Shown: positions 658 through 9,564 of the stretch, in pieces
How the letters are laid out: each line of letters begins with the position of its first letter
How positions within the stretch are numbered: position 1 is the stretch's first letter
Assembly (NCBI GenBank): GCA_043820025.1
Contig: JBDRED010000041.1
Coordinates: 1 to 27,108, forward strand
Reading direction: 5' to 3'
Length of the DNA: 27,108 nt
Source of the DNA: JBDRED01 sp043820025 [NCBI: Elusimicrobiota bacterium]
GTDB lineage: Bacteria; RUG730; JBDRED01
Notes under the pieces: model-generated
Databases searched by the model: none
What the model saw: the letters and a program-made list of their open reading frames with translations, nothing else
What the model was told of the DNA's origin: nothing
Translations under genes and position numbers: made by a program

Positions 658-2997
658 TTAATAATTAGGCCAATTGGCCACAACCTCCCAGCCGCTAACG
701 CCATCTGAAACGACCCATACAGAATCATTTCTGTAATACAATCCAAAGAAACCTTCGCTTACACCGTTCACTGTATCGCCTGACAACGCGGCGACCGCAA
801 CATTTTGATCTGTAGAACTTATATCTTTAACAAAATACATTCTGCCCGGGCATGCGCTGGGATCAGGCAGGTAAAAAATGATGTAACCCGAATCATTACC
901 TGCCAAAATCACAGCAGCGTCCTCAAAATCAGCCAGATTATAAGTACCTGAACTGGTATGCACATAAACCTTAGCTCCCATGGTCCCATAAACAAATAAA
1001 TTAGAGGTTGGATTTGTTGTGCCAATACCGATATTACCGGAATCATAATATATTTTATCTGATGTTCCCCTGTCCCAGTAAGTGTCTGTGCCTGCAAAGG
1101 TATTTGTCGATGAGGCAATCGTTCCGTCCGGCATTTTAAAGCCGCCTGTCATGGATTCCATCTGGCCGTTAATACTAACTCCGTTTAATACATATAGCGG
1201 AGACTTACCTGATATTGAAGAAACATACAAATTATTAAAATCGCCTGCATCTGCCTGAACCGTTGTGTCTGATAATATATCTCCCGCAACATGCAAAAGC
1301 TCTAACGGGTTATTAGTTCCTATCCCTATATTGCCTGCGCTCTTTATAGTCATATAGTTAGGTGCTCCGTCATATCCCGTAAAGTTCAAATCTGCGGTAG
1401 AACCTAAAACAGATGAGGTCGCAAACTGTATATAACCTGTTGTCCCGTCATTAACTATCCTTACCTTAGTATCAGCATTTAAATATATTCCCGCATTACT
1501 ACTGCCCGCGCCTGAGAATAATGTCGTATCGCTCTGTATTGAACCGCTTGATCTGATATTGCCTGTTACCTCTAATGCTGACCCCGGATTTGTAGTTCCT
1601 ATTCCAATGTATCCGCCATCCTCTACAAACAGGCCGTGACCTGCATCATCGTATACCTTTAATCCGTTTGCATCTATTGCCTTTGCTCCGGCTCCAATAA
1701 AACTGCCGCCTGAAGATATCTCTACGTCATAATCGCCGTTTCCAATATTAATAAATTTAAATTTGTGGTCATAAGCAGAATATTGCCAAGCGCCGCCGCC
1801 ATTCCATGCCCCATAAATTCCGCCTATTATTCCCGGAGTTATTCCCAGCCCATATCCGGTTCCGTTTAATCCCTCTGAAAGATACACCTGTCCTTTTCCC
1901 ACTGCGCTTGAAATCCAAACTGTTGATACAGGATCTACAGCGCCGATTCCCAGATTCCCTGTAACATAAAGTTTTCCTGCTTCTGAAACCGTAAAAATAT
2001 CCACAGCTGATGCAGGATTATTTGAATCATGTTTTACTCTAAAATAATTTGATGTGCCTGTCGAATTATTATCTATAACTACAGCTACATCCTCAGGCCC
2101 TTGAAGAGACATATATTCAGGCGTTCCTGTCTGGCTTTTTAAGACTCTGTAATTATCTCCAAAATCTACTTGATAGCCGTTACTTAGACGAATATTACCC
2201 TTCGAAATATCTAATTTCTGCGCAGGATTTGTCGAGCCTATGCCAATAAAACCTTCTGTTACTATTAAGTTACTATTCATTGTAGATACTGCTGTGGTTG
2301 AGCCTACAATTACTCCGCCTCTTCCAAGATAATCACAATATATTTGTAATGACGAATAACCTCCGCTATCTTTAAACTTTGCCCATTTACCGCCTACTAA
2401 ATGCTGAAATACCATATCCGGCGTATCTTTATATTGCAATTGATATTGCCTTCCGCCATTTTCTATAAATTGTAAATATTTACTGTTACCTGTTTCCATA
2501 TCGCCGCTGTCTTTGACATGCAATCCGACATTATCTCCATAGTCCAAAAAATAGATTCCATTTAACGCGTTTGCCGATACGCTTGAAGTCTTTACCTCCG
2601 CTGATTTTATATTATCCGTAACTTCTAATTGTTCAATCGGATTATTAGTTCCAATACCAATATTTCCTTCGTTATAATAAATATTACTTCCTGCGCCCTT
2701 ATCCCATAATCCTCCGCCAAAAGACGAGGTAGAAAGCATTACCGTGCTATCAGGCAGTTTAAAGCCGCCGCTTCTTGATTCGATCATGCTGTCTGAAACT
2801 ATCCCTCCCATAAAATATGCCAAGCCGTTAGATGTTACGCTCGAGATTGTTAAATCATTTGAGTTATTTATAAACATCGAACTTGACCCGTCATTTGTAT
2901 CGAGCTTTATTATAATCTCAGGGGCAGAATTAATATTCGATATGTTAAAGATAAGGATTAATGAAAATAATATTAAATGTTTTTCATTTAATCTCAT
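658..2997 (-). CDS. Secreted IGIGTTNP-repeat protein, tail-fibre-like (779 aa)
   Basis: I do not recognise a named family for the whole protein. Residues 1-25 form a signal peptide with a hydrophobic core. The mature protein starts IIIKLDTNDGSSS, as in its neighbours. Six copies of a G-x-I/L-GIG-x-x-N/D-P motif are spaced through the chain (first near residue 111, second near 249, third near 348), each followed by a short strand such as EQLEV. This spacing is usual in phage tail-fibre-like and bacterial surface proteins of beta-rich, probably trimeric fold. A module with SGGFKLPDST, STSSFGGGLW and IYYNEGNIGIG at residues 70-120 recurs near the C-terminus as TGGFKMPDGT and IYYDSGNIGIG. The last 100 residues (LPDPSACPGRMY, LSGDTVNG, VSDGVSGWEVV) resemble C-terminal domains of phage tail proteins. 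The start has a GAGGT ribosome site 5 bases upstream. It follows the 771-aa paralog by 38 bp. Confidence 0.85.
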   Translation of the reverse strand: MRLNEKHLILFSLILIFNISNINSAPEIIIKLDTNDGSSSMFINNSNDLTISSVTSNGLAYFMGGIVSDSMIESRSGGFKLPDSTVMLSTSSFGGGLWDKGAGSNIYYNEGNIGIGTNNPIEQLEVTDNIKSAEVKTSSVSANALNGIYFLDYGDNVGLHVKDSGDMETGNSKYLQFIENGGRQYQLQYKDTPDMVFQHLVGGKWAKFKDSGGYSSLQIYCDYLGRGGVIVGSTTAVSTMNSNLIVTEGFIGIGSTNPAQKLDISKGNIRLSNGYQVDFGDNYRVLKSQTGTPEYMSLQGPEDVAVVIDNNSTGTSNYFRVKHDSNNPASAVDIFTVSEAGKLYVTGNLGIGAVDPVSTVWISSAVGKGQVYLSEGLNGTGYGLGITPGIIGGIYGAWNGGGAWQYSAYDHKFKFINIGNGDYDVEISSGGSFIGAGAKAIDANGLKVYDDAGHGLFVEDGGYIGIGTTNPGSALEVTGNIRSSGSIQSDTTLFSGAGSSNAGIYLNADTKVRIVNDGTTGYIQFATSSVLGSTADLNFTGYDGAPNYMTIKSAGNIGIGTNNPLELLHVAGDILSDTTVQADAGDFNNLYVSSISGKSPLYVLNGVSINGQMESMTGGFKMPDGTIASSTNTFAGTDTYWDRGTSDKIYYDSGNIGIGTTNPTSNLFVYGTMGAKVYVHTSSGTYNLADFEDAAVILAGNDSGYIIFYLPDPSACPGRMYFVKDISSTDQNVAVAALSGDTVNGVSEGFFGLYYRNDSVWVVSDGVSGWEVVANWPNY

Positions 2998-3035: not shown

Positions 3036-5351
3036 CTAAGGAGCATAATAAATGTGTATAGTCTCCCACCTGCTTGTTCCATCTGAAACGAGAACTACAG
3101 CGTCATCTCTATTGTATAAATACCAGTTTGAATCACTTTGGTTAAAATAATCGCCGCTTAAGGCTGTAAGCGTACAGCCATAAGATGTGCTTCTGTTTTT
3201 AATGAGATACATTCTACCCGGGCATGTCGCAGGATCCGGCATAGTAATAGTCGGATTAAGGCCATTTACCAGAATTATTGTAGCCTCGACACTTGCCAAA
3301 TTTGTATTACTTCCAACATTTAACGTCCTGGCACCCATTGTGCCATAAACATATAAATCCGACGCAGGATTCGTAGTCCCAATACCTACATTACCGGAAT
3401 TATAATAAATAATACTGCCTGAGCCGGCGCTCCAGAGACTTCCGCTGCCGCCAATTGTGCTGGTAGATGTCATAACAGTTCCGTCAGGCATTTTAAAACC
3501 GCCTGTCAAAGACTCTATCAGTCCATTTACGCTGACTCCGTTTAATACATAAAGCGGCGACTTGCCTGATATAGATGAAACATATAAATTATTAAAATCA
3601 CCCGACTCTGCCTGAACCGTTGTGTCAGATAATATATCTCCGGCAACATGCAAAAGCTCTGACGGGTTATTCGTTCCTATTCCTATCCTGCCGCTGCCCT
3701 TTATTGTCATGTGGTTAGGAACGCCGTAATAACCTGTAAAGTTTAAGTCTGCGGTTGAACCTGACACCGACGAAGTTGCAACCTGCACATAACCTGTTGT
3801 GCCGCTATTTGTCAGTCTTATTTTGGTATCTGCATTGAGAACAATGCCTGCGTCGCCGCTGCCACTGCCTGCATACAAGGCTGTATCACTGCGTATCCAA
3901 TCTGTAGCTCTAACATTGCCTGTTACATACAAAGGCGTCACAGGATTGGTCGTTCCGATCCCCACATACCCGCCATCTTTTATAAACAGGCCATTACCGC
4001 CGTCATCGTATACCTTTAACCCGTTTGCATCCAGCGCCTTTATTTCCTTTCCTATAAAACTTCCGCCTGATGATATCTCGACGTCATAATCGCCGTTTCC
4101 AACATTAATAAACTTAAATTTAAGGTCATCACTCAAATCTGCTATTGCGCCGCCGCCATTCCATATTCCATAAGCGCCGCCAATTGCGCCGCCTGTAAGA
4201 GCCAGTCCATAAAGAGGCCCGCTTAATCCGCCTGAAAGATACAACTGCCCGTTCCCTACAGTATTTGAAATCCAGAGCGCAGATGTAGGATTTGTTGTTC
4301 CTATACCTACATTGCCTGTTACATAAACCTTACCTGCTTCTGAAACCGTGAATATATTTGTAGCTGCCGCAGGATCTGTTGAATCACGCATTACCCTGAA
4401 ATAGTTCGAAGACCCTGTTGAGTTATTGTCTATTACTACTGCCACATCCTCAGGGCTTTGAAGAGACATGTACTGAGGCGTTCCTATCTGATACTTTAAT
4501 ACTCTATAATCATCTCCAAAATCCAATTGATAGCCGTCATCCAGACGGATATTGCCTTTATAAATATCTAGCTTTTGAGCAGGATTTGTTGTGCCTATAC
4601 CTATATAACCTTCTGTTACCAAAAGATTACTGTTTAAAACCGATGATAGAGTGGCCGAACCCACTATTACTCCGCCAGCCCCGCTGCCGTCGTGATATAC
4701 TTGAAGCGATGAAAAACCTCCGCTGTCAGTAAACTTCGTCCATTTACCGCTGGACATTTGTTGAAATACCATTTCAGGCGCTGCTGTATATTGCACCTTG
4801 AATTCGCTCCCGCCGCTTTCTCTAAATTTTATCTCTTTTCCGAGGCCTGTTTCCATATGCCCGCCGTCTTTTATATGTAACCCCACATTATTTCCATCAT
4901 CAAGCAGGAATAGCCCTGCAGATGTGCTTGCCGACACGCTTGAGGCCTTTACCTCCGCAGATTTTATATTATCAGTTACTTCTAATTGTTCAACCGGGTT
5001 ATTAGTTCCAATGCCGATATTGCCTTCGTCATAATAAATATTACTTCCTGCGCCCTCAAGCCATAATCCTCCTCCTAAGGAACTTGTTGATACCAAAACA
5101 GTCCCATCAGGCATTTTAAGCCCGCCTGATTTCGATTCTATTTGGTTGTCGGAAATAATACCGCCAGTATAATATGCCTGGCCGTCTGAAGTTATACTAG
5201 ATACAGTAATATCATTTGAATCATTTATAAACATAGCGCTTGATCCGTCGTTTGTTTCGAGTTTAATAGTTACATCCGAAGCTGAATAGAGATATGTATT
5301 TAATATGGCAAGAATAAATATTTTGCATAATAGCATCTGCTGCTTACTCAT
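3036..5351 (-). CDS. Secreted IGIGTTNP-repeat protein, tail-fibre-like (771 aa)
   Basis: This is the first gene of the tandem paralog set and nearest to the promoter at 5394-5421. It has a signal peptide (about residues 1-24), the shared mature start VTIKLETNDGSSAMF, six GIGTTNP-type repeats in the same order and spacing as the 779-aa paralog, and the duplicated GGxKMPDGT / IYYxxGNIGIG module near both ends. The C-terminal domain (MPDPATCPGRMYLIK, LSGDYFN, LVSDGTSRWETI) matches the paralog's. The two genes are very alike at DNA level in blocks, for example 3535-3690 against 1178-1330, so they derive from a gene duplication. AAGGAG lies ahead of the ATG. A surface fibre, adhesin or host-attachment role is inference; no enzymatic motif was seen. 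Confidence 0.85.
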   Translation of the reverse strand: MSKQQMLLCKIFILAILNTYLYSASDVTIKLETNDGSSAMFINDSNDITVSSITSDGQAYYTGGIISDNQIESKSGGLKMPDGTVLVSTSSLGGGLWLEGAGSNIYYDEGNIGIGTNNPVEQLEVTDNIKSAEVKASSVSASTSAGLFLLDDGNNVGLHIKDGGHMETGLGKEIKFRESGGSEFKVQYTAAPEMVFQQMSSGKWTKFTDSGGFSSLQVYHDGSGAGGVIVGSATLSSVLNSNLLVTEGYIGIGTTNPAQKLDIYKGNIRLDDGYQLDFGDDYRVLKYQIGTPQYMSLQSPEDVAVVIDNNSTGSSNYFRVMRDSTDPAAATNIFTVSEAGKVYVTGNVGIGTTNPTSALWISNTVGNGQLYLSGGLSGPLYGLALTGGAIGGAYGIWNGGGAIADLSDDLKFKFINVGNGDYDVEISSGGSFIGKEIKALDANGLKVYDDGGNGLFIKDGGYVGIGTTNPVTPLYVTGNVRATDWIRSDTALYAGSGSGDAGIVLNADTKIRLTNSGTTGYVQVATSSVSGSTADLNFTGYYGVPNHMTIKGSGRIGIGTNNPSELLHVAGDILSDTTVQAESGDFNNLYVSSISGKSPLYVLNGVSVNGLIESLTGGFKMPDGTVMTSTSTIGGSGSLWSAGSGSIIYYNSGNVGIGTTNPASDLYVYGTMGARTLNVGSNTNLASVEATIILVNGLNPTITMPDPATCPGRMYLIKNRSTSYGCTLTALSGDYFNQSDSNWYLYNRDDAVVLVSDGTSRWETIHIYYAP

Positions 5352-5451: not shown

Positions 5452-7653
5452 TTATTTTGACCGGCTAAATACCGGGCTATTTTCAGAAATAATATGCAAA
5501 AGCTCAAACTGCCAGTTTGTTTTAGCGTTAAATGTATTTTTTCCTAATTTAACAATAACCTCATTTCCATTGTTTAATTGAGAAATATTCTCTGCCATAC
5601 CCCAGCCGACTGTATCAACTGCCTTGATGCATGTTTTTATATGGTCCTTATTTGCACCGATAATACGGGTATTAGTAAAATCCGGCCTGTAAATTTTAAA
5701 TACCGGATATTCATTTGACTTTCCAAACGGCTCCAGCATCTCAATTCCTTCTAAAAAACCTCTTGTTATATCACTCGATTCCATTGAGGCGTCAATAAAT
5801 ATTTTTTCATTTAAAATATCTTCTGTTATAATATTTTCGCATACATTTTTTATTGATTGTTCAAAACCTTCTAATTTATCACAGCTCACCGTAAGGCCTG
5901 CCGCTGCTTCATGCCCGCCAAACTTTAGGATAAAATCCGCGCACTCCGCCAGTAAATCAACGGCGCTTACTCCGTCAACACAGCGCATTGAGCCAATCGC
6001 TTCTTTCCCTTCTTTTGCCAGCACTATAGAAACCTTGTTATATTTTTTCTTTATAGCTGAAGCCGCAATGCCTGTAACTCCTCTATAAATCCCTGACTCA
6101 TAAATAACAAGAACCTTTTCTGCGCCGTTTTTTTTCTCTGCAATTTTATCAGCTATATCAAAAGCTTCGGCCTGTAAATCTTTTCGCTTAGCGTTTGTTT
6201 CAAGAAGTTTATTAATTAAAATTAAGATTTTTTCAGGCTCATCCGACAACAGTAAATCTATCACAATCTCCGGAACACGCATCCTGCCCGCTGAATTAAT
6301 GAGCGGCGCAAGATTCCATGAAATATCGCGCGCAGTAAATTGCGCCCTGTCAGAAAAAACATGATTCACCAGGATATTAAGCCCCTTGTTTCCTGAATCT
6401 CTAAATTTCTTTATGCCAATTTTAACAATTGTTCTATTCTCGTCAATCAGCGGCACAATGTCCGCTATTGTTGATAAAGCAGTCAAGGGAAGCGCGGTAT
6501 TTAAATATTCCTGAATACGCAGATTTTGTTTTGTCAGCATAATATCAAGAATCGAAGCCGTAACCATAGCGTCTGCTAACGCGCGATGAAGACCGCCATG
6601 TTCGATACAAAATGATTCTGCAAGCTTTCCCAGGTTATGCCTTATACCCGGGTACATCATTCTAGACATTTCAAGCGTATCAATTACCTGATTTTTAATT
6701 TTTTTGTTTAAATGTTTTTTATATTCCTTTTGAAGAAACCCTAAATCAAACTGCGCGCTATGAAAAACAAGGATCGCATCGCCTAAAAATTTGTCGAACT
6801 TTGGAATAACCTCTTCCATATAAGGAGCGTTTTTACACATCTCGTCAGTTATTCCGTGAATATTTATAACATTATCCGGAATTTTATTTTCCGGTTTAAT
6901 AAGCGACGAAAATGTGTCTTTGACTACGCCATTAACAATTTTTACAGCTCCTATTTCAATAAGTTCATTATTATTCGGATTTGAACCCGTTGTTTCTGTG
7001 TCAATAACAACGAGTTCCTTTTGAAAATAGTGATCATAAGAAAGATGGAGAGCATGTCCGAGCTTAAAAACCACGCCGCACCCTGAAAGCTCCCTAAATG
7101 GATATATAGAATCCTTTCGTTTTGGGTCAATGACAGCTTCAGCCTCAGGCAGATTTTTCTGCGGCTCATGATGATCAGTAATAATAACATCAATTGAGCG
7201 CTTTTTAAGATTAAACGCAACCTCGCTATCTGTTATACCGCAATCTACAGTAATAATGAGTGAGATATTATATTCATCAACTACAGGATAGACCTCATTA
7301 CTAAGGCCATACCCATCTTTAGGAATAAATGTAACAGCATTAATACCATAGCGCTCTAATATACTCTTCATTAGCACTACAGATGTAACCCCATCAACAT
7401 CCTTATCGCCATAAATAAGAATTTTTTCTTTATTTTTTATAGCGTGTTTGATCCTAATAACTGCCTTTTCCATGTCAGGCATTAAGAATGGGTTATGAAG
7501 ATGCGTTATGTCGGGATTTAAGAATTTTTTTATTCTTTTTGTAGTGTCATGCCCTCTTTGTACGAGCATATTTAGAATAATATCCGGTATATCGAGGCTA
7601 TTAGATAACTGCTCAACTTTTGATGTGTGAAATTCTTTTTCTAACCATTGCAT
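5452..7653 (-). CDS. recJ: RecJ exonuclease with inserted DnaQ-type DEDDh exonuclease
   Basis: RecJ is the 5'-3' single-strand DNA exonuclease of recombinational and mismatch repair. Residues 80-200 hold the DHH core: GDKDVDG (83-88; the usual Tyr of GDYD is Lys), VDCG at Asp137 and TDHH at 159-162, ending in GCGVVFKLGHAL. RecJ would normally continue straight into the helix ending TIADIVPL, seen here at 396-402. Instead about 165 residues (213-375, bases about 6529-7017) form a full DnaQ-like 3'-5' exonuclease: IDTETTG (Asp218, Glu220), HSAQFD (Asp303) and HRALADA (His356, Asp361). All five DEDDh residues are present. RecJ then resumes with NSAGRM (453-458), the DHHA1 domain with GGHEAAAGLT (579-588) and a C-terminal OB-like region. 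The length of 733 aa fits a usual RecJ of about 570 plus the insert. The start overlaps the end of the transketolase C gene by 13 bp, implying coupled translation. Confidence 0.93.
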   Translation of the reverse strand: MQWLEKEFHTSKVEQLSNSLDIPDIILNMLVQRGHDTTKRIKKFLNPDITHLHNPFLMPDMEKAVIRIKHAIKNKEKILIYGDKDVDGVTSVVLMKSILERYGINAVTFIPKDGYGLSNEVYPVVDEYNISLIITVDCGITDSEVAFNLKKRSIDVIITDHHEPQKNLPEAEAVIDPKRKDSIYPFRELSGCGVVFKLGHALHLSYDHYFQKELVVIDTETTGSNPNNNELIEIGAVKIVNGVVKDTFSSLIKPENKIPDNVINIHGITDEMCKNAPYMEEVIPKFDKFLGDAILVFHSAQFDLGFLQKEYKKHLNKKIKNQVIDTLEMSRMMYPGIRHNLGKLAESFCIEHGGLHRALADAMVTASILDIMLTKQNLRIQEYLNTALPLTALSTIADIVPLIDENRTIVKIGIKKFRDSGNKGLNILVNHVFSDRAQFTARDISWNLAPLINSAGRMRVPEIVIDLLLSDEPEKILILINKLLETNAKRKDLQAEAFDIADKIAEKKNGAEKVLVIYESGIYRGVTGIAASAIKKKYNKVSIVLAKEGKEAIGSMRCVDGVSAVDLLAECADFILKFGGHEAAAGLTVSCDKLEGFEQSIKNVCENIITEDILNEKIFIDASMESSDITRGFLEGIEMLEPFGKSNEYPVFKIYRPDFTNTRIIGANKDHIKTCIKAVDTVGWGMAENISQLNNGNEVIVKLGKNTFNAKTNWQFELLHIISENSPVFSRSK

Positions 7654-8591
7654 TGTTTTTTTCTACTCATGGCCTTTTTTGCCGAAGCCACTATTTTCTC
7701 AGCCGTCAATCCATAAACCTTTAATAATTCATCCGGTTCTCCTGATTCGCCAAAAACATCTTTTATGCCTATCATTTCCATTGGCGCAGGAAAGCTGCGG
7801 GCAAGCTCCTCGGATATTGCGCTTCCCAGTCCGCCGATTATTTGATGTTCCTCAGCAGTTACAACAGCGCCTGTTTCCCTGGCAGTATTTATCAATGTCT
7901 GCGTGTCCAAAGGTTTTATTGTATGAACATTTACAACCTTTGCCTTGATATTTTCATGCTCTAAGATCTCAGCTGCGCGAAGCGCTTCCGAAACCATAAC
8001 GCCGCACGCAAATATTGAAACATCGCTTCCTTCCCTCATAATATTCATTTTACCGATCTCAAACTCAGTGTCTTTATTTGTCATAACAGGAACAGCTGTC
8101 CTGCCTAATCTCAAAAACACAGGCCCTGATATCTCGGAAATCTTTTTCGTTGCTTTGATAGACTCATAATAATCGCATGGCACAATTATTTTCATATTTG
8201 GAATTGCTCTCATAATCGCTATATCTTCCAGAGCCTGATGCGTTGCTCCGTCGGGCCCTACCATAATCCCGCTGTGTGTTCCTACTATCTTTACATTAAG
8301 ATTTGAATAACAAACAGTATTTCTGATCTGATCCCAAGGCCTGCCTGTAGTGAATATACTATAAGCGCACGCGTATGGTATTAGCCCCATAAGAGAGAGT
8401 CCTGCTGAAATACCTATCATATTCTGCTCAGCTACGCCAACATTAAAAAATCTATCCGGAAACGCGTTAGCGAATAAGTTAGACATTGTAGACGCTGTAA
8501 CATCCGCGCTTAAAACAACAATTTTATTATTTTCTTTGCCTAATTCCGCAAGCGCCTCGCCATACCCTAGTCTCGTAGCTTTTTTTTCCAT
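7641..8591 (-). CDS. Transketolase, C-terminal subunit
   Basis: This is the half of transketolase carrying the pyrimidine-binding and C-terminal domains (316 aa, the usual size for the split form). With its partner it moves two-carbon ketol units between sugar phosphates in the non-oxidative pentose phosphate pathway, using thiamine diphosphate. VGVAEQNMIG places the cofactor-activating glutamate at Glu55. SADVTAST near the N-terminus and the closing region around FGESGEPDELLKVYGL are typical of the family. A GGAG ribosome site precedes the ATG. It lies 142 bp after the N-terminal subunit gene, a gap filled by a GC-rich structured sequence, and overlaps recJ by 13 bp. DXS-type synthase is a more distant relative, but the two-gene layout and motifs fit transketolase. 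Confidence 0.92.
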   Translation of the reverse strand: MEKKATRLGYGEALAELGKENNKIVVLSADVTASTMSNLFANAFPDRFFNVGVAEQNMIGISAGLSLMGLIPYACAYSIFTTGRPWDQIRNTVCYSNLNVKIVGTHSGIMVGPDGATHQALEDIAIMRAIPNMKIIVPCDYYESIKATKKISEISGPVFLRLGRTAVPVMTNKDTEFEIGKMNIMREGSDVSIFACGVMVSEALRAAEILEHENIKAKVVNVHTIKPLDTQTLINTARETGAVVTAEEHQIIGGLGSAISEELARSFPAPMEMIGIKDVFGESGEPDELLKVYGLTAEKIVASAKKAMSRKKQCNG

Positions 8592-8733: not shown

Positions 8734-9564
8734 TTATATTCCTATTGCTTTATTCTCTATCTCTTGCAATGCTTTATCTCTTTGTTCTGCATTTGGAGAC
8801 TTGCCATGCCAGTCTGCAATATTTTCCATAAATGATATGCCTTTGCCTTTTATAGTTTTTGCTATTATGACAGTCGGCTTTTTCTTAATGGTCATTGCTT
8901 TTTTATAAGCGTCTAATATTTCATTAAAATTATGTCCATCAATCTCAATAGCGTGCCAGCCAAATGATTCCCATTTCTCTTTGAGAGGCTTTATTGACAT
9001 AACATCGTCCACAAAACCATCAATCTGCAAATTATTATTATCAACTATCGCGCATAAATTATCCAGTTTAAAATGAGACGCGCTCATTACCGCTTCCCAA
9101 ATCTGGCCGGACTGAAGCTCTCCATCTCCCAGCAGTACATATACACGCGAATTGATTTTTTTATTAATCATGCCAAGAGCCATGCCAACTCCAATAGACA
9201 ACCCCTGGCCTAATGAACCTGTGGTTGTCTCTATCCCGGGCAGATTATAGCAATATCCCGGATGTCCCTGCAGTTTTGTGCCGCATTTTCTCAAAGTGCA
9301 TAGCTGTTTGTCGTCGAAATATCCCTTACGCGCTAAACATGAGTATAAAGTCGGACAAACATGCCCCTTTGAAAATATTACCCTGTCTCGTTCTTCCCAT
9401 GCAGGATTTTTTGGGTCATGTTTAAGAATACCCCAGTATAGTGAGACCATAATCTCAACGCATGACAGAGAACCTCCGGGGTGGCCGCTTCCTGCTTCAT
9501 ATATCATATTTATTATATCTTTCCTGACTAATTTACCGGCGTCAATTAGTTCTTGAATATTCAT
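8734..9564 (-). CDS. Transketolase, N-terminal subunit
   Basis: This 276-aa protein is the thiamine-diphosphate diphosphate-binding half of a split transketolase. Seen motifs are GSGHPGGS with His28, SKGHVCPTLY at 66-75, TGSLGQGL near 115-122, and the thiamine/Mg site GDGELQSGQIWEA from Gly146 with the Asn-Asn-Asn at 175-177. It would act with the downstream C-terminal subunit as an alpha2-beta2-type enzyme of the pentose phosphate pathway. A GGGGGA ribosome site stands before the ATG, and a promoter candidate lies at 9600-9628, so this gene may open a tktN-tktC-recJ transcript. Split transketolases are common in archaea, Firmicutes and candidate phyla. Nothing is missing from the domain. Confidence 0.93.
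   Translation of the reverse strand: MNIQELIDAGKLVRKDIINMIYEAGSGHPGGSLSCVEIMVSLYWGILKHDPKNPAWEERDRVIFSKGHVCPTLYSCLARKGYFDDKQLCTLRKCGTKLQGHPGYCYNLPGIETTTGSLGQGLSIGVGMALGMINKKINSRVYVLLGDGELQSGQIWEAVMSASHFKLDNLCAIVDNNNLQIDGFVDDVMSIKPLKEKWESFGWHAIEIDGHNFNEILDAYKKAMTIKKKPTVIIAKTIKGKGISFMENIADWHGKSPNAEQRDKALQEIENKAIGI

What the first reader, a model, noticed from the sequence alone, without database searches (positions are those of the whole stretch)
6529..7017. DnaQ-type exonuclease nested inside RecJ
A complete DEDDh 3'-5' exonuclease (Asp218, Glu220, Asp303, His356, Asp361 all present) is inserted in frame between the RecJ DHH core (ending FKLGHAL) and the helix leading to TIADIVPL. Both parent enzymes keep their catalytic residues, apart from GDYD being GDKD in RecJ. 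One chain could then degrade single-strand DNA from both ends, or the insert could act on RNA or on mispaired 3' ends during repair. A similar nesting is known in PolC, where an exonuclease is inserted in a PHP domain. I know of no characterised RecJ of this kind.
Basis: partly seen in the sequence, partly recalled or inferred. Interest (0 to 1): 0.8.

Follow-up and report, generated by a model that had tools for sequence, protein, structure and literature searches.

The report
RecJ nuclease with nested second exonuclease
In little-known bacteria, the DNA-chewing enzyme RecJ carries a complete second DNA-chewing enzyme of the opposite direction inside its own fold, which may let one protein eat single-stranded DNA from both ends and feed the pieces to neighbouring recycling enzymes.

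Summary
The 733-aa recJ gene (5452-7653, -) holds a full DEDDh exonuclease (residues 211-378) between DHH motifs III and IV; all five catalytic residues and the RecJ metal ligands are present. AlphaFold2: pLDDT 94.2, pTM 0.93. It is no artefact: the nest occurs in 25 Elusimicrobiota genomes and in a second small phylum, as one clade (99/88) nearest to PolC-type exonucleases.

Three findings go beyond the lead. (1) These RecJs share an altered 5'-nucleotide pocket. (2) The nested domain is mostly the genome's only RNase_T-family exonuclease: 23 of 26 intact-nest genomes have no other, while 47 of 55 relatives with a decayed or deleted nest have a free one. Few independent events underlie this; a kinship-aware test gave no support. 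(3) Nucleoside phosphorylase genes lie near recJ at 26 of 26 other loci of this type, against 0 of 12 ordinary recJ loci; the window itself shows only transketolase genes.

Best reading: a two-site, opposite-polarity ssDNA exonuclease tied to nucleoside recycling, which also supplies the cell's DnaQ-type activity. DnaE PHP proofreading motifs are intact in 30 of 30 genomes examined, so replicative proofreading is a weaker rival. No activity is measured.

The parts
5452..7653 (-). recJ gene with nested exonuclease, 733 aa; ATG at 7653, overlaps the 3' end of the upstream transketolase gene by 13 bases
7042..7653 (-). RecJ residues 1-204: N-terminal part with the DHH domain, motifs I-III (GDKD, VDCG, TDHH)
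7399..7410 (-). motif I GDKD (residues 82-85); Lys84 stands where DrRecJ has Tyr80
6520..7023 (-). nested DEDDh exonuclease domain, residues 211-378
   Evidence: VIA-align Z 26.0 to SaDinG exo, 25.6 to E. coli epsilon, 24.9 to PolC exo
6994..7002 (-). Exo I motif DTE: D218 and E220
6745..6747 (-). Exo II D303
6571..6588 (-). Exo III H356 and D361
5452..6501 (-). RecJ residues 385-733: motif IV (D398), DHHA1, OB fold
7641..8591 (-). transketolase C-terminal subunit gene, same strand, directly upstream; the only part of the relatives' gene setting, with the next gene, that is seen in this window
8734..9564 (-). transketolase N-terminal subunit gene

Best explanation
This is a RecJ-family protein that carries two nuclease sites: the DHH/DHHA1 site of RecJ (expected 5'-3' on ssDNA) and a nested PolC/DnaQ-type DEDDh site (expected 3'-5'). 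I think it degrades single-stranded DNA from both ends to 5'-mononucleotides. In these bacteria it would supply the cell's only DnaQ-family exonuclease (and, in the nest-bearing Elusimicrobiota examined, the only RecJ found), and hand nucleotides to the nucleoside phosphorylases, phosphopentomutase, cytidine deaminase and transketolase encoded beside it in its relatives. Shown by sequence: the nesting, its conservation, both sets of catalytic residues, the gene setting of relatives, the pattern of free DnaQ presence. Inferred: activity, polarity, substrate, and the metabolic link.
For: All 25 other rows with a full-length insert (202 or more residues in the stretch 196-398) keep all five DEDDh residues, at 33-42% identity to the window; one further row (G017) is cut off and shows D and E only. 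RecJ metal ligands are kept in the nested, decayed and paralogous forms sampled. Model pLDDT 94.2, pTM 0.93, both halves match solved relatives. Intact-nest genomes: 23 of 26 have no RNase_T match other than the nested one; decayed or deleted nests: 47 of 55 have one (Fisher 1.4e-10 without correction for kinship). Two of the three exceptions (G016, G334) carry a DEDDh protein of another lineage, the latter on a long branch; only G008 has a DnaQ of the phylum's usual kind. Ten nest-bearing genomes hold a single RecJ, the nested one. Gene setting: nucleoside phosphorylase genes near 17 of 17 nested and 9 of 9 decayed-nest recJ loci, near 4 of 5 divergent nested paralogues in the second phylum (the fifth runs to the end of its contig stretch), 0 of 12 ordinary recJ loci and 0 of 5 ordinary recJ in the second phylum (one of these five is the same gene as one of the twelve).
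Against: No activity is measured. The window's own 27 kb hold only the transketolase genes, no phosphorylase. Decayed-nest recJ genes sit in the same gene setting, so the setting does not require the nested exonuclease. On the RecJ tree only 2 independent contrasts on well-supported branches exist for the nest/free-DnaQ pattern (4 on all branches), and over random pairings the free gene changed in the expected direction no more often than not, so the pattern is not shown once kinship is counted. Eight of 55 decayed-nest genomes have no RNase_T match either, including the 3.4-Mb G330; many genomes are incomplete assemblies. Exonuclease VII is present in all 21 intact-nest genomes searched, so other ssDNA digestion exists. 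The altered 5' pocket may change the RecJ half's substrate.
Confidence: 0.53

Rival explanations
1. The nested domain is a replicative or repair proofreader: a DnaQ (epsilon) substitute that happens to be housed in RecJ and removes mispaired 3' ends.
For: Complementary occurrence with free DnaQ; nearest kin are PolC proofreading domains; Z 25.6 to E. coli epsilon.
Against: The PHP proofreading motif HHDHEHCDH is complete in DnaE of 30 of 30 genomes examined, 20 with an intact nest and 10 without, so a candidate proofreader is already present. The domain is predicted as firmly placed in RecJ (pTM 0.93), with no evident tether to DnaE (not modelled). The gene setting of relatives is metabolic.
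Confidence: 0.2
2. The nested domain acts on RNA (as RNase T or oligoribonuclease do), the chain degrading both RNA and DNA for nucleoside recovery.
For: 23 of 26 nested genomes show no other RNase_T-family protein, hence no Orn or RNase T by that model; neighbouring phosphorylases could use ribonucleosides; a second DHH/DHHA1 protein lies beside or near recJ in some loci.
Against: Closest relatives are DNA enzymes (PolC exo, DinG exo, epsilon). The RecJ half of the window keeps the Tyr of GYG (DrRecJ Tyr114), which clashes with ribose in DrRecJ.
Confidence: 0.15
3. The nested domain is only a structural or binding module, catalysis being incidental.
For: In most relatives the domain has decayed yet a shortened remnant persists, so part of it is kept without catalysis.
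Against: All five catalytic residues are kept in all 25 other rows with a full-length insert, at low overall identity; three genomes have deleted the domain almost entirely, so scaffolding is dispensable too.
Confidence: 0.06
4. Assembly or gene-calling artefact.
For: None found.
Against: Same nesting in independent genomes of two phyla; open frame throughout; even composition.
Confidence: 0.005

Closest known systems
Bacterial RecJ (DrRecJ 5F55, TthRecJ 2ZXO)
   Same: Domain order DHH-DHHA1-OB; metal ligands D83, D85, D87, D137, H161, D398; GYG tyrosine; Arg457, Ser555 and Arg557 of the phosphate pocket (sequence); Z 51.5 to 6LRD
   Different: About 165-aa exonuclease between motifs III and IV; Lys for Tyr80 in the window, Arg/Lys/Ser in the clade; Arg109 lost; gene setting of relatives metabolic
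PolC
   Same: Also a DEDDh exonuclease nested inside another metallo-nuclease domain (PHP), stated in PMC3919608 (passages); its exo is among the nearest kin in the tree
   Different: Host domain is RecJ, not PHP; no polymerase
DinG with N-terminal exonuclease (S. aureus DinG, PMC12345164, passages)
   Same: DEDDh domain in one chain with another DNA enzyme; best-scoring fold match of the insert, Z 26.0, tied with epsilon at 25.6
   Different: Fused end to end, partner is a helicase
Cdc45 and archaeal GAN/RecJ-Cdc45
   Same: RecJ-fold proteins; human Cdc45 has a helical insertion in its DHH domain (passages of PMC4873980)
   Different: That insertion is a helical element thought to serve replisome contacts, not an enzyme
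E. coli RecJ plus ExoI/ExoX as separate exonucleases in mismatch repair (recalled)
   Same: Same pair of opposite polarities
   Different: Here in one chain

Membership tests
RecJ (TIGR00644) | Family score over curated cut-off | tested here: met
   471.7 vs 396.9 bits
RecJ (TIGR00644) | Two-metal ligands: Asp79, 81, 83, 135, His159, Asp223 of DrRecJ | tested here: met
   D83, D85, D87, D137, H161, D398 (and the sequence; ligand list from PMC4846377)
RecJ (TIGR00644) | 5'-nucleotide pocket: Tyr80, Arg109, Arg280, Ser371, Arg373 of DrRecJ | tested here: not met
   Tyr80 is Lys and Arg109 is lost; the other three are present. Shared by the whole clade, so this is a RecJ with an altered pocket rather than a non-RecJ
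RecJ (TIGR00644) | 5'-3' ssDNA exonuclease activity | not testable with these tools
   needs assay
DEDDh (DnaQ-like) exonuclease, PF00929 | Full-length family match | tested here: met
   151.9 bits, cut-off 24, model 1-164; TIGR00573 144.7 vs 71.5
DEDDh (DnaQ-like) exonuclease, PF00929 | D, E, D, H, D catalytic residues | tested here: met
   D218 E220 D303 H356 D361
DEDDh (DnaQ-like) exonuclease, PF00929 | Fold | tested here: met
   Z 24-26, rmsd 1.2-1.9 to DinG, epsilon, PolC and DnaQ domains
Pol III epsilon (DnaQ proper) | Equivalog score TIGR01406 / PRK05711 | tested here: not met
   131.5 vs 222.7 and 124.7 vs 196 bits
Pol III epsilon (DnaQ proper) | Binds DnaE and the clamp | not tested
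   no complex modelled
PolC | Exo inside PHP plus polymerase | tested here: not met
   PRK00448 164.7 vs 873 bits, exo part only

The most novel reading that the evidence does not exclude
A distinct RecJ lineage with a second, opposite-polarity exonuclease nested in its catalytic domain works as a DNA-consuming enzyme of a nucleoside-catabolism gene group; in nest-bearing Elusimicrobiota it displaced both the ordinary RecJ and the free DnaQ exonuclease, and the nested site decays where a free DnaQ is kept.
Probability: 0.33. Interest if true: 0.85.

Novelty: new variant of a known kind. Interest (0 to 1): 0.72.

Why it matters
RecJ is a textbook one-way (5'-3') nuclease. A natural RecJ with a built-in 3'-5' enzyme, conserved across two phyla, would be a single-chain two-ended ssDNA exonuclease, and its series of intact, decayed, shrunken and deleted nests is a natural experiment on domain nesting and loss. 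The tie to nucleoside phosphorylase genes raises a directly testable role for RecJ in DNA recycling rather than, or besides, repair. The clade's changes at Tyr80 and Arg109 give a testable hypothesis about 5'-end recognition.

Tried and rejected
Artefact: rejected (two phyla, many genomes). Recent copy of the organisms' own dnaQ: not favoured; in a tree with outside sequences the nested domains join the PolC/Fusobacterium group (83/84) while 29 of 33 free rows form another clade (99/99). In a tree without outside rows the nested set merely sat beside free ones. Simple proofreader: weakened by intact PHP motifs. Decay of the RecJ half in the second-phylum paralogues: I suspected it from the changed motif surroundings, but all ligands tested are present, so dropped. 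Kinship-aware test of the nest/free-DnaQ pattern: 2 contrasts on supported branches, median p 1. A strict link of motif-I Tyr with Arg109: on rechecking, one ordinary row, L111, has Arg in motif I and still an Arg near the Arg109 place, and two have Phe, so the link is with the clade, not strictly with Tyr. Structural search of the decayed-nest model (collected in 104) listed RecJ and other DHH-type structures and two alanyl-tRNA synthetase fragments but no exonuclease among 50 rows; homology of the remnant rests on alignment and on its order of strands and helices. First genome scan by peptide patterns found nothing; viral scans found nothing. Plasmid and phage tblastn listings showed RecJs whose best-ranked places are about 1.5-1.7 kb long, too short to hold the insert; the unlisted records were not examined. 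ExoVII absence as a reason for the nest: rejected, it is present in all 21 intact-nest genomes searched. Rows dropped: in the DEDDh tree nine of 52 loci with RNase_T matches (L158, L167-L170, L225, L229, L234, L237) were lost because my motif filter found no fitting frame; thirteen rows were left out on purpose; row L054 (G017) was left out.

Print: searches for RecJ with DnaQ/fusion/DHH, RecJ with Elusimicrobi, RecJ with exonuclease domain/inserted/DHHA1, Elusimicrobi with DnaQ, recJ with nucleoside phosphorylase/operon/transketolase and with salvage gave no paper that describes this protein, judged from listings and, for PMC12345164 (returned), passages. Most subscription papers and all preprints are outside that library; domain-architecture databases were not available.

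Full report
What is there. The gene at 5452-7653 (-) encodes 733 aa. Pfam gives DHH, RNase_T, DHHA1 and RecJ_OB in that order, with a complete RNase_T match at 215-369; TIGR00644 recJ is passed. Against solved RecJs the sequence aligns in two pieces with the insert between. The insert separates motif III (TDHH) from motif IV (TIADIVPL), so the DHH catalytic domain itself is interrupted. Composition is even across the gene. AlphaFold2 with 62 sequences gives pLDDT 94.2 and pTM 0.93, so the placement of the nested domain on RecJ is predicted with confidence. VIA-align: whole RecJ Z 51.5 (6LRD); residues 211-378 Z 26.0 to S. aureus DinG exo, 25.6 to E. coli epsilon, 24.9 to PolC exo. No coordinates were available, so the geometry of the two sites was not measured.

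How widespread. The first genome scan by peptide patterns found nothing. A fusion-specific DNA pattern (DEDDh motif, gap, RecJ motif IV) found 25 stretches: 10 true fusions, nine titled Elusimicrobia and one an untitled bacterium, 10 ordinary RecJs and 5 without RecJ. No whole genome is held for the window; handles were taken from the fusion loci, and each of those 10 genomes has one RecJ, the nested one. A search of 340 genomes of that phylum gave a match in 299, many of them a DnaQ only. I extracted RecJs from the best-matching loci and aligned 95 rows: the window, 81 of this RecJ type and 13 ordinary ones. Of the 81, 26 keep the nest: 25 with a full-length insert and all five catalytic residues, and one cut off after D and E (G017). 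The other 55 have lost catalytic residues: by length of the stretch 196-398, three have 181-185 residues, five 161-168, 44 have 111-146 and three (L070, L079, L088) about 40, that is, no domain. A model of a decayed form (pLDDT 91.8) shows a shortened domain in the same place, with the strand and helix order expected of a cut-down RNase H-like fold, though a structural search of that model listed no exonuclease.

A second phylum. One fusion genome (G005) lies in another phylum with seven genomes held. G005 and G347 carry a RecJ of the same kind (G347 as a fragment). G342-G346 have an ordinary RecJ (GDYD, no insert) and a second, divergent RecJ of 711-730 aa (639 aa, running off its stretch, in G346) with a nested DEDDh; in the four that I aligned (L172, L174, L176, L183) the nested residues and the RecJ ligands are complete. 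In a DEDDh tree with outside sequences, the nested domains of both phyla form one clade (99/88), the second-phylum ones together (100/95) and the window at the base of the Elusimicrobiota set (98/86). The nearest outside group is PolC and a Fusobacterium protein (83/84); 29 of 33 free DnaQ-like rows of the phylum form a separate clade (99/99). The window's LepA is 49-61% identical to that of the Elusimicrobiota genomes searched and 47-54% to three of the second phylum; two more of that phylum showed no LepA match. I place the window in Elusimicrobiota, provisionally.

Altered 5' pocket. In DrRecJ, Tyr80 stacks on the first base and Arg109 is among the residues that hold the phosphate of the 5' nucleotide (PMC4846377, passages). 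In my alignment all 13 ordinary rows keep an arginine at or near the Arg109 place (10 with Tyr, two with Phe, one, L111, with Arg in motif I; one of the Phe rows read by eye). None of the 81 rows of this clade that cover the stretch (window included; L052 does not cover it) keeps it, and all 81 have Arg, Lys or Ser for the Tyr (two rows read by eye). Equivalents of Arg280, Ser371 and Arg373 are kept in the window. So GDKD is part of a clade-wide remodelling, perhaps with the basic residue moved to the other wall of the pocket (inference).

Complementarity with free DnaQ. RNase_T (PF00929) was sought in 29 genomes with a nested or part-decayed copy, 24 decayed, deleted or ordinary ones, all 340 of the phylum and the 7 of the second phylum. 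Intact-nest genomes (25 Elusimicrobiota plus G005): 23 of 26 have no other match. The exceptions are G008 (a DnaQ of the phylum's usual kind) and G016 and G334 (DEDDh proteins of other lineages, G334's on a long branch). Decayed or deleted nests: 47 of 55 have a match; 8 do not (G242, G253, G265, G279, G308, G310, G324, G330; for G308, G310 and G324 this is inferred from their absence from the list of matching genomes, which names only 20 of 37 genomes without a match). In the second phylum the nested copy is the only match in G005, G342, G343 and G346; G344, G345 and G347 have one more, weak, whose Exo I motif has lost one or both catalytic acids. Fisher p for 3/26 versus 47/55 is 1.4e-10, but the tree offers only 2 independent contrasts on supported branches and no significance, so this is a strong pattern from few events. 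PMC12926913 (passages) reports more than three standalone DnaQ homologues per proteome on average over its set, which makes genomes with none notable; but in this phylum most genomes have only one to a few.

Not an evident replacement of replicative proofreading. DnaE of 30 genomes (20 intact nest, 10 not) all carry the complete PHP motif HHDHEHCDH, which the same paper treats as an active proofreader. Exonuclease VII is found in 30 of 33 genomes, including all 21 intact-nest ones; the three without it have decayed nests.

Gene setting. Genes for purine and pyrimidine nucleoside phosphorylases, a second phosphorylase-superfamily protein like MTA phosphorylase, a metalloenzyme like phosphopentomutase, cytidine deaminase and transketolase halves, with a phosphate transporter and a DUF47 protein in some, lie around recJ, mostly on its strand (Pfam; comparison; the finer names MTA phosphorylase and phosphopentomutase are recalled likenesses). 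At least one nucleoside phosphorylase lies near 17 of 17 nested loci and 9 of 9 decayed-nest loci. The window itself shows only the two transketolase genes, recJ overlapping the first by 13 bases. The divergent nested paralogues of the second phylum lie next to PNP in 4 of 5 loci (the fifth runs to the end of its stretch), the ordinary RecJs of the same genomes in 0 of 5, and 0 of 12 ordinary RecJ loci show any of these genes. Flanks differ in length, some being under 2 kb. A PfkB-family kinase and a second DHH/DHHA1 protein appear in some loci.

Interpretation. The most economical reading is a RecJ lineage that became tied to nucleoside catabolism and took up a PolC-like exonuclease into its DHH domain before the two phyla parted (or that passed between them), and thereby offers both polarities in one chain. 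Where a free DnaQ is present the nest has mostly decayed while RecJ and the gene setting stay, which suggests that the nested activity is general enough to be replaced by a free DnaQ. What is shown is anatomy, conservation and context; activity, polarity and physiology are inferred.

Verdict. Observation confirmed; interpretation partly supported and extended. New variant of a known kind: both enzymes are known; the nesting and its setting are not described in the papers found by my searches.

Noticed in passing
G001, G004, G005, G006, G010, G337, G338, G340, G341: A separate protein in open frames of about 400-460 aa that matches only the first 270-280 positions (PHP part) of DnaE at E about 1e-57 to 1e-68; seen in 9 of 20 nest-bearing and 0 of 10 other genomes searched.
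   Followed up: no
   Followed up: no
L114, L116, L147, L151, L188, L192, L251: DnaQ-like proteins with a C-terminal extension that looks like a WYL domain (recalled likeness, not scanned); in the second-phylum ones (L188, L192, L251) the Exo I motif has lost catalytic acid(s).
   Followed up: partly
window 658-2997 and 3036-5351 (-): Two tandem paralogous proteins of 779 and 771 aa with many IGIGTTNP-type repeats and no Pfam match at E 0.001.
   Followed up: partly
L035 / G009:C8: Nested recJ is split by a frame change near the DHHA1 domain; may be a sequencing error or a pseudogene.
   Followed up: no
L111 / G011: A long-branched 697-aa RecJ without nest but with Arg in motif I (YADRDVDG) and an Arg near the Arg109 place; its position in the tree is unclear.
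   Followed up: no
L252-L255, L257: A second DHH/DHHA1 protein in open frames of about 410-440 aa with an HDDPDG motif beside or near recJ, and PfkB-like kinases in the same gene group in other loci.
   Followed up: partly
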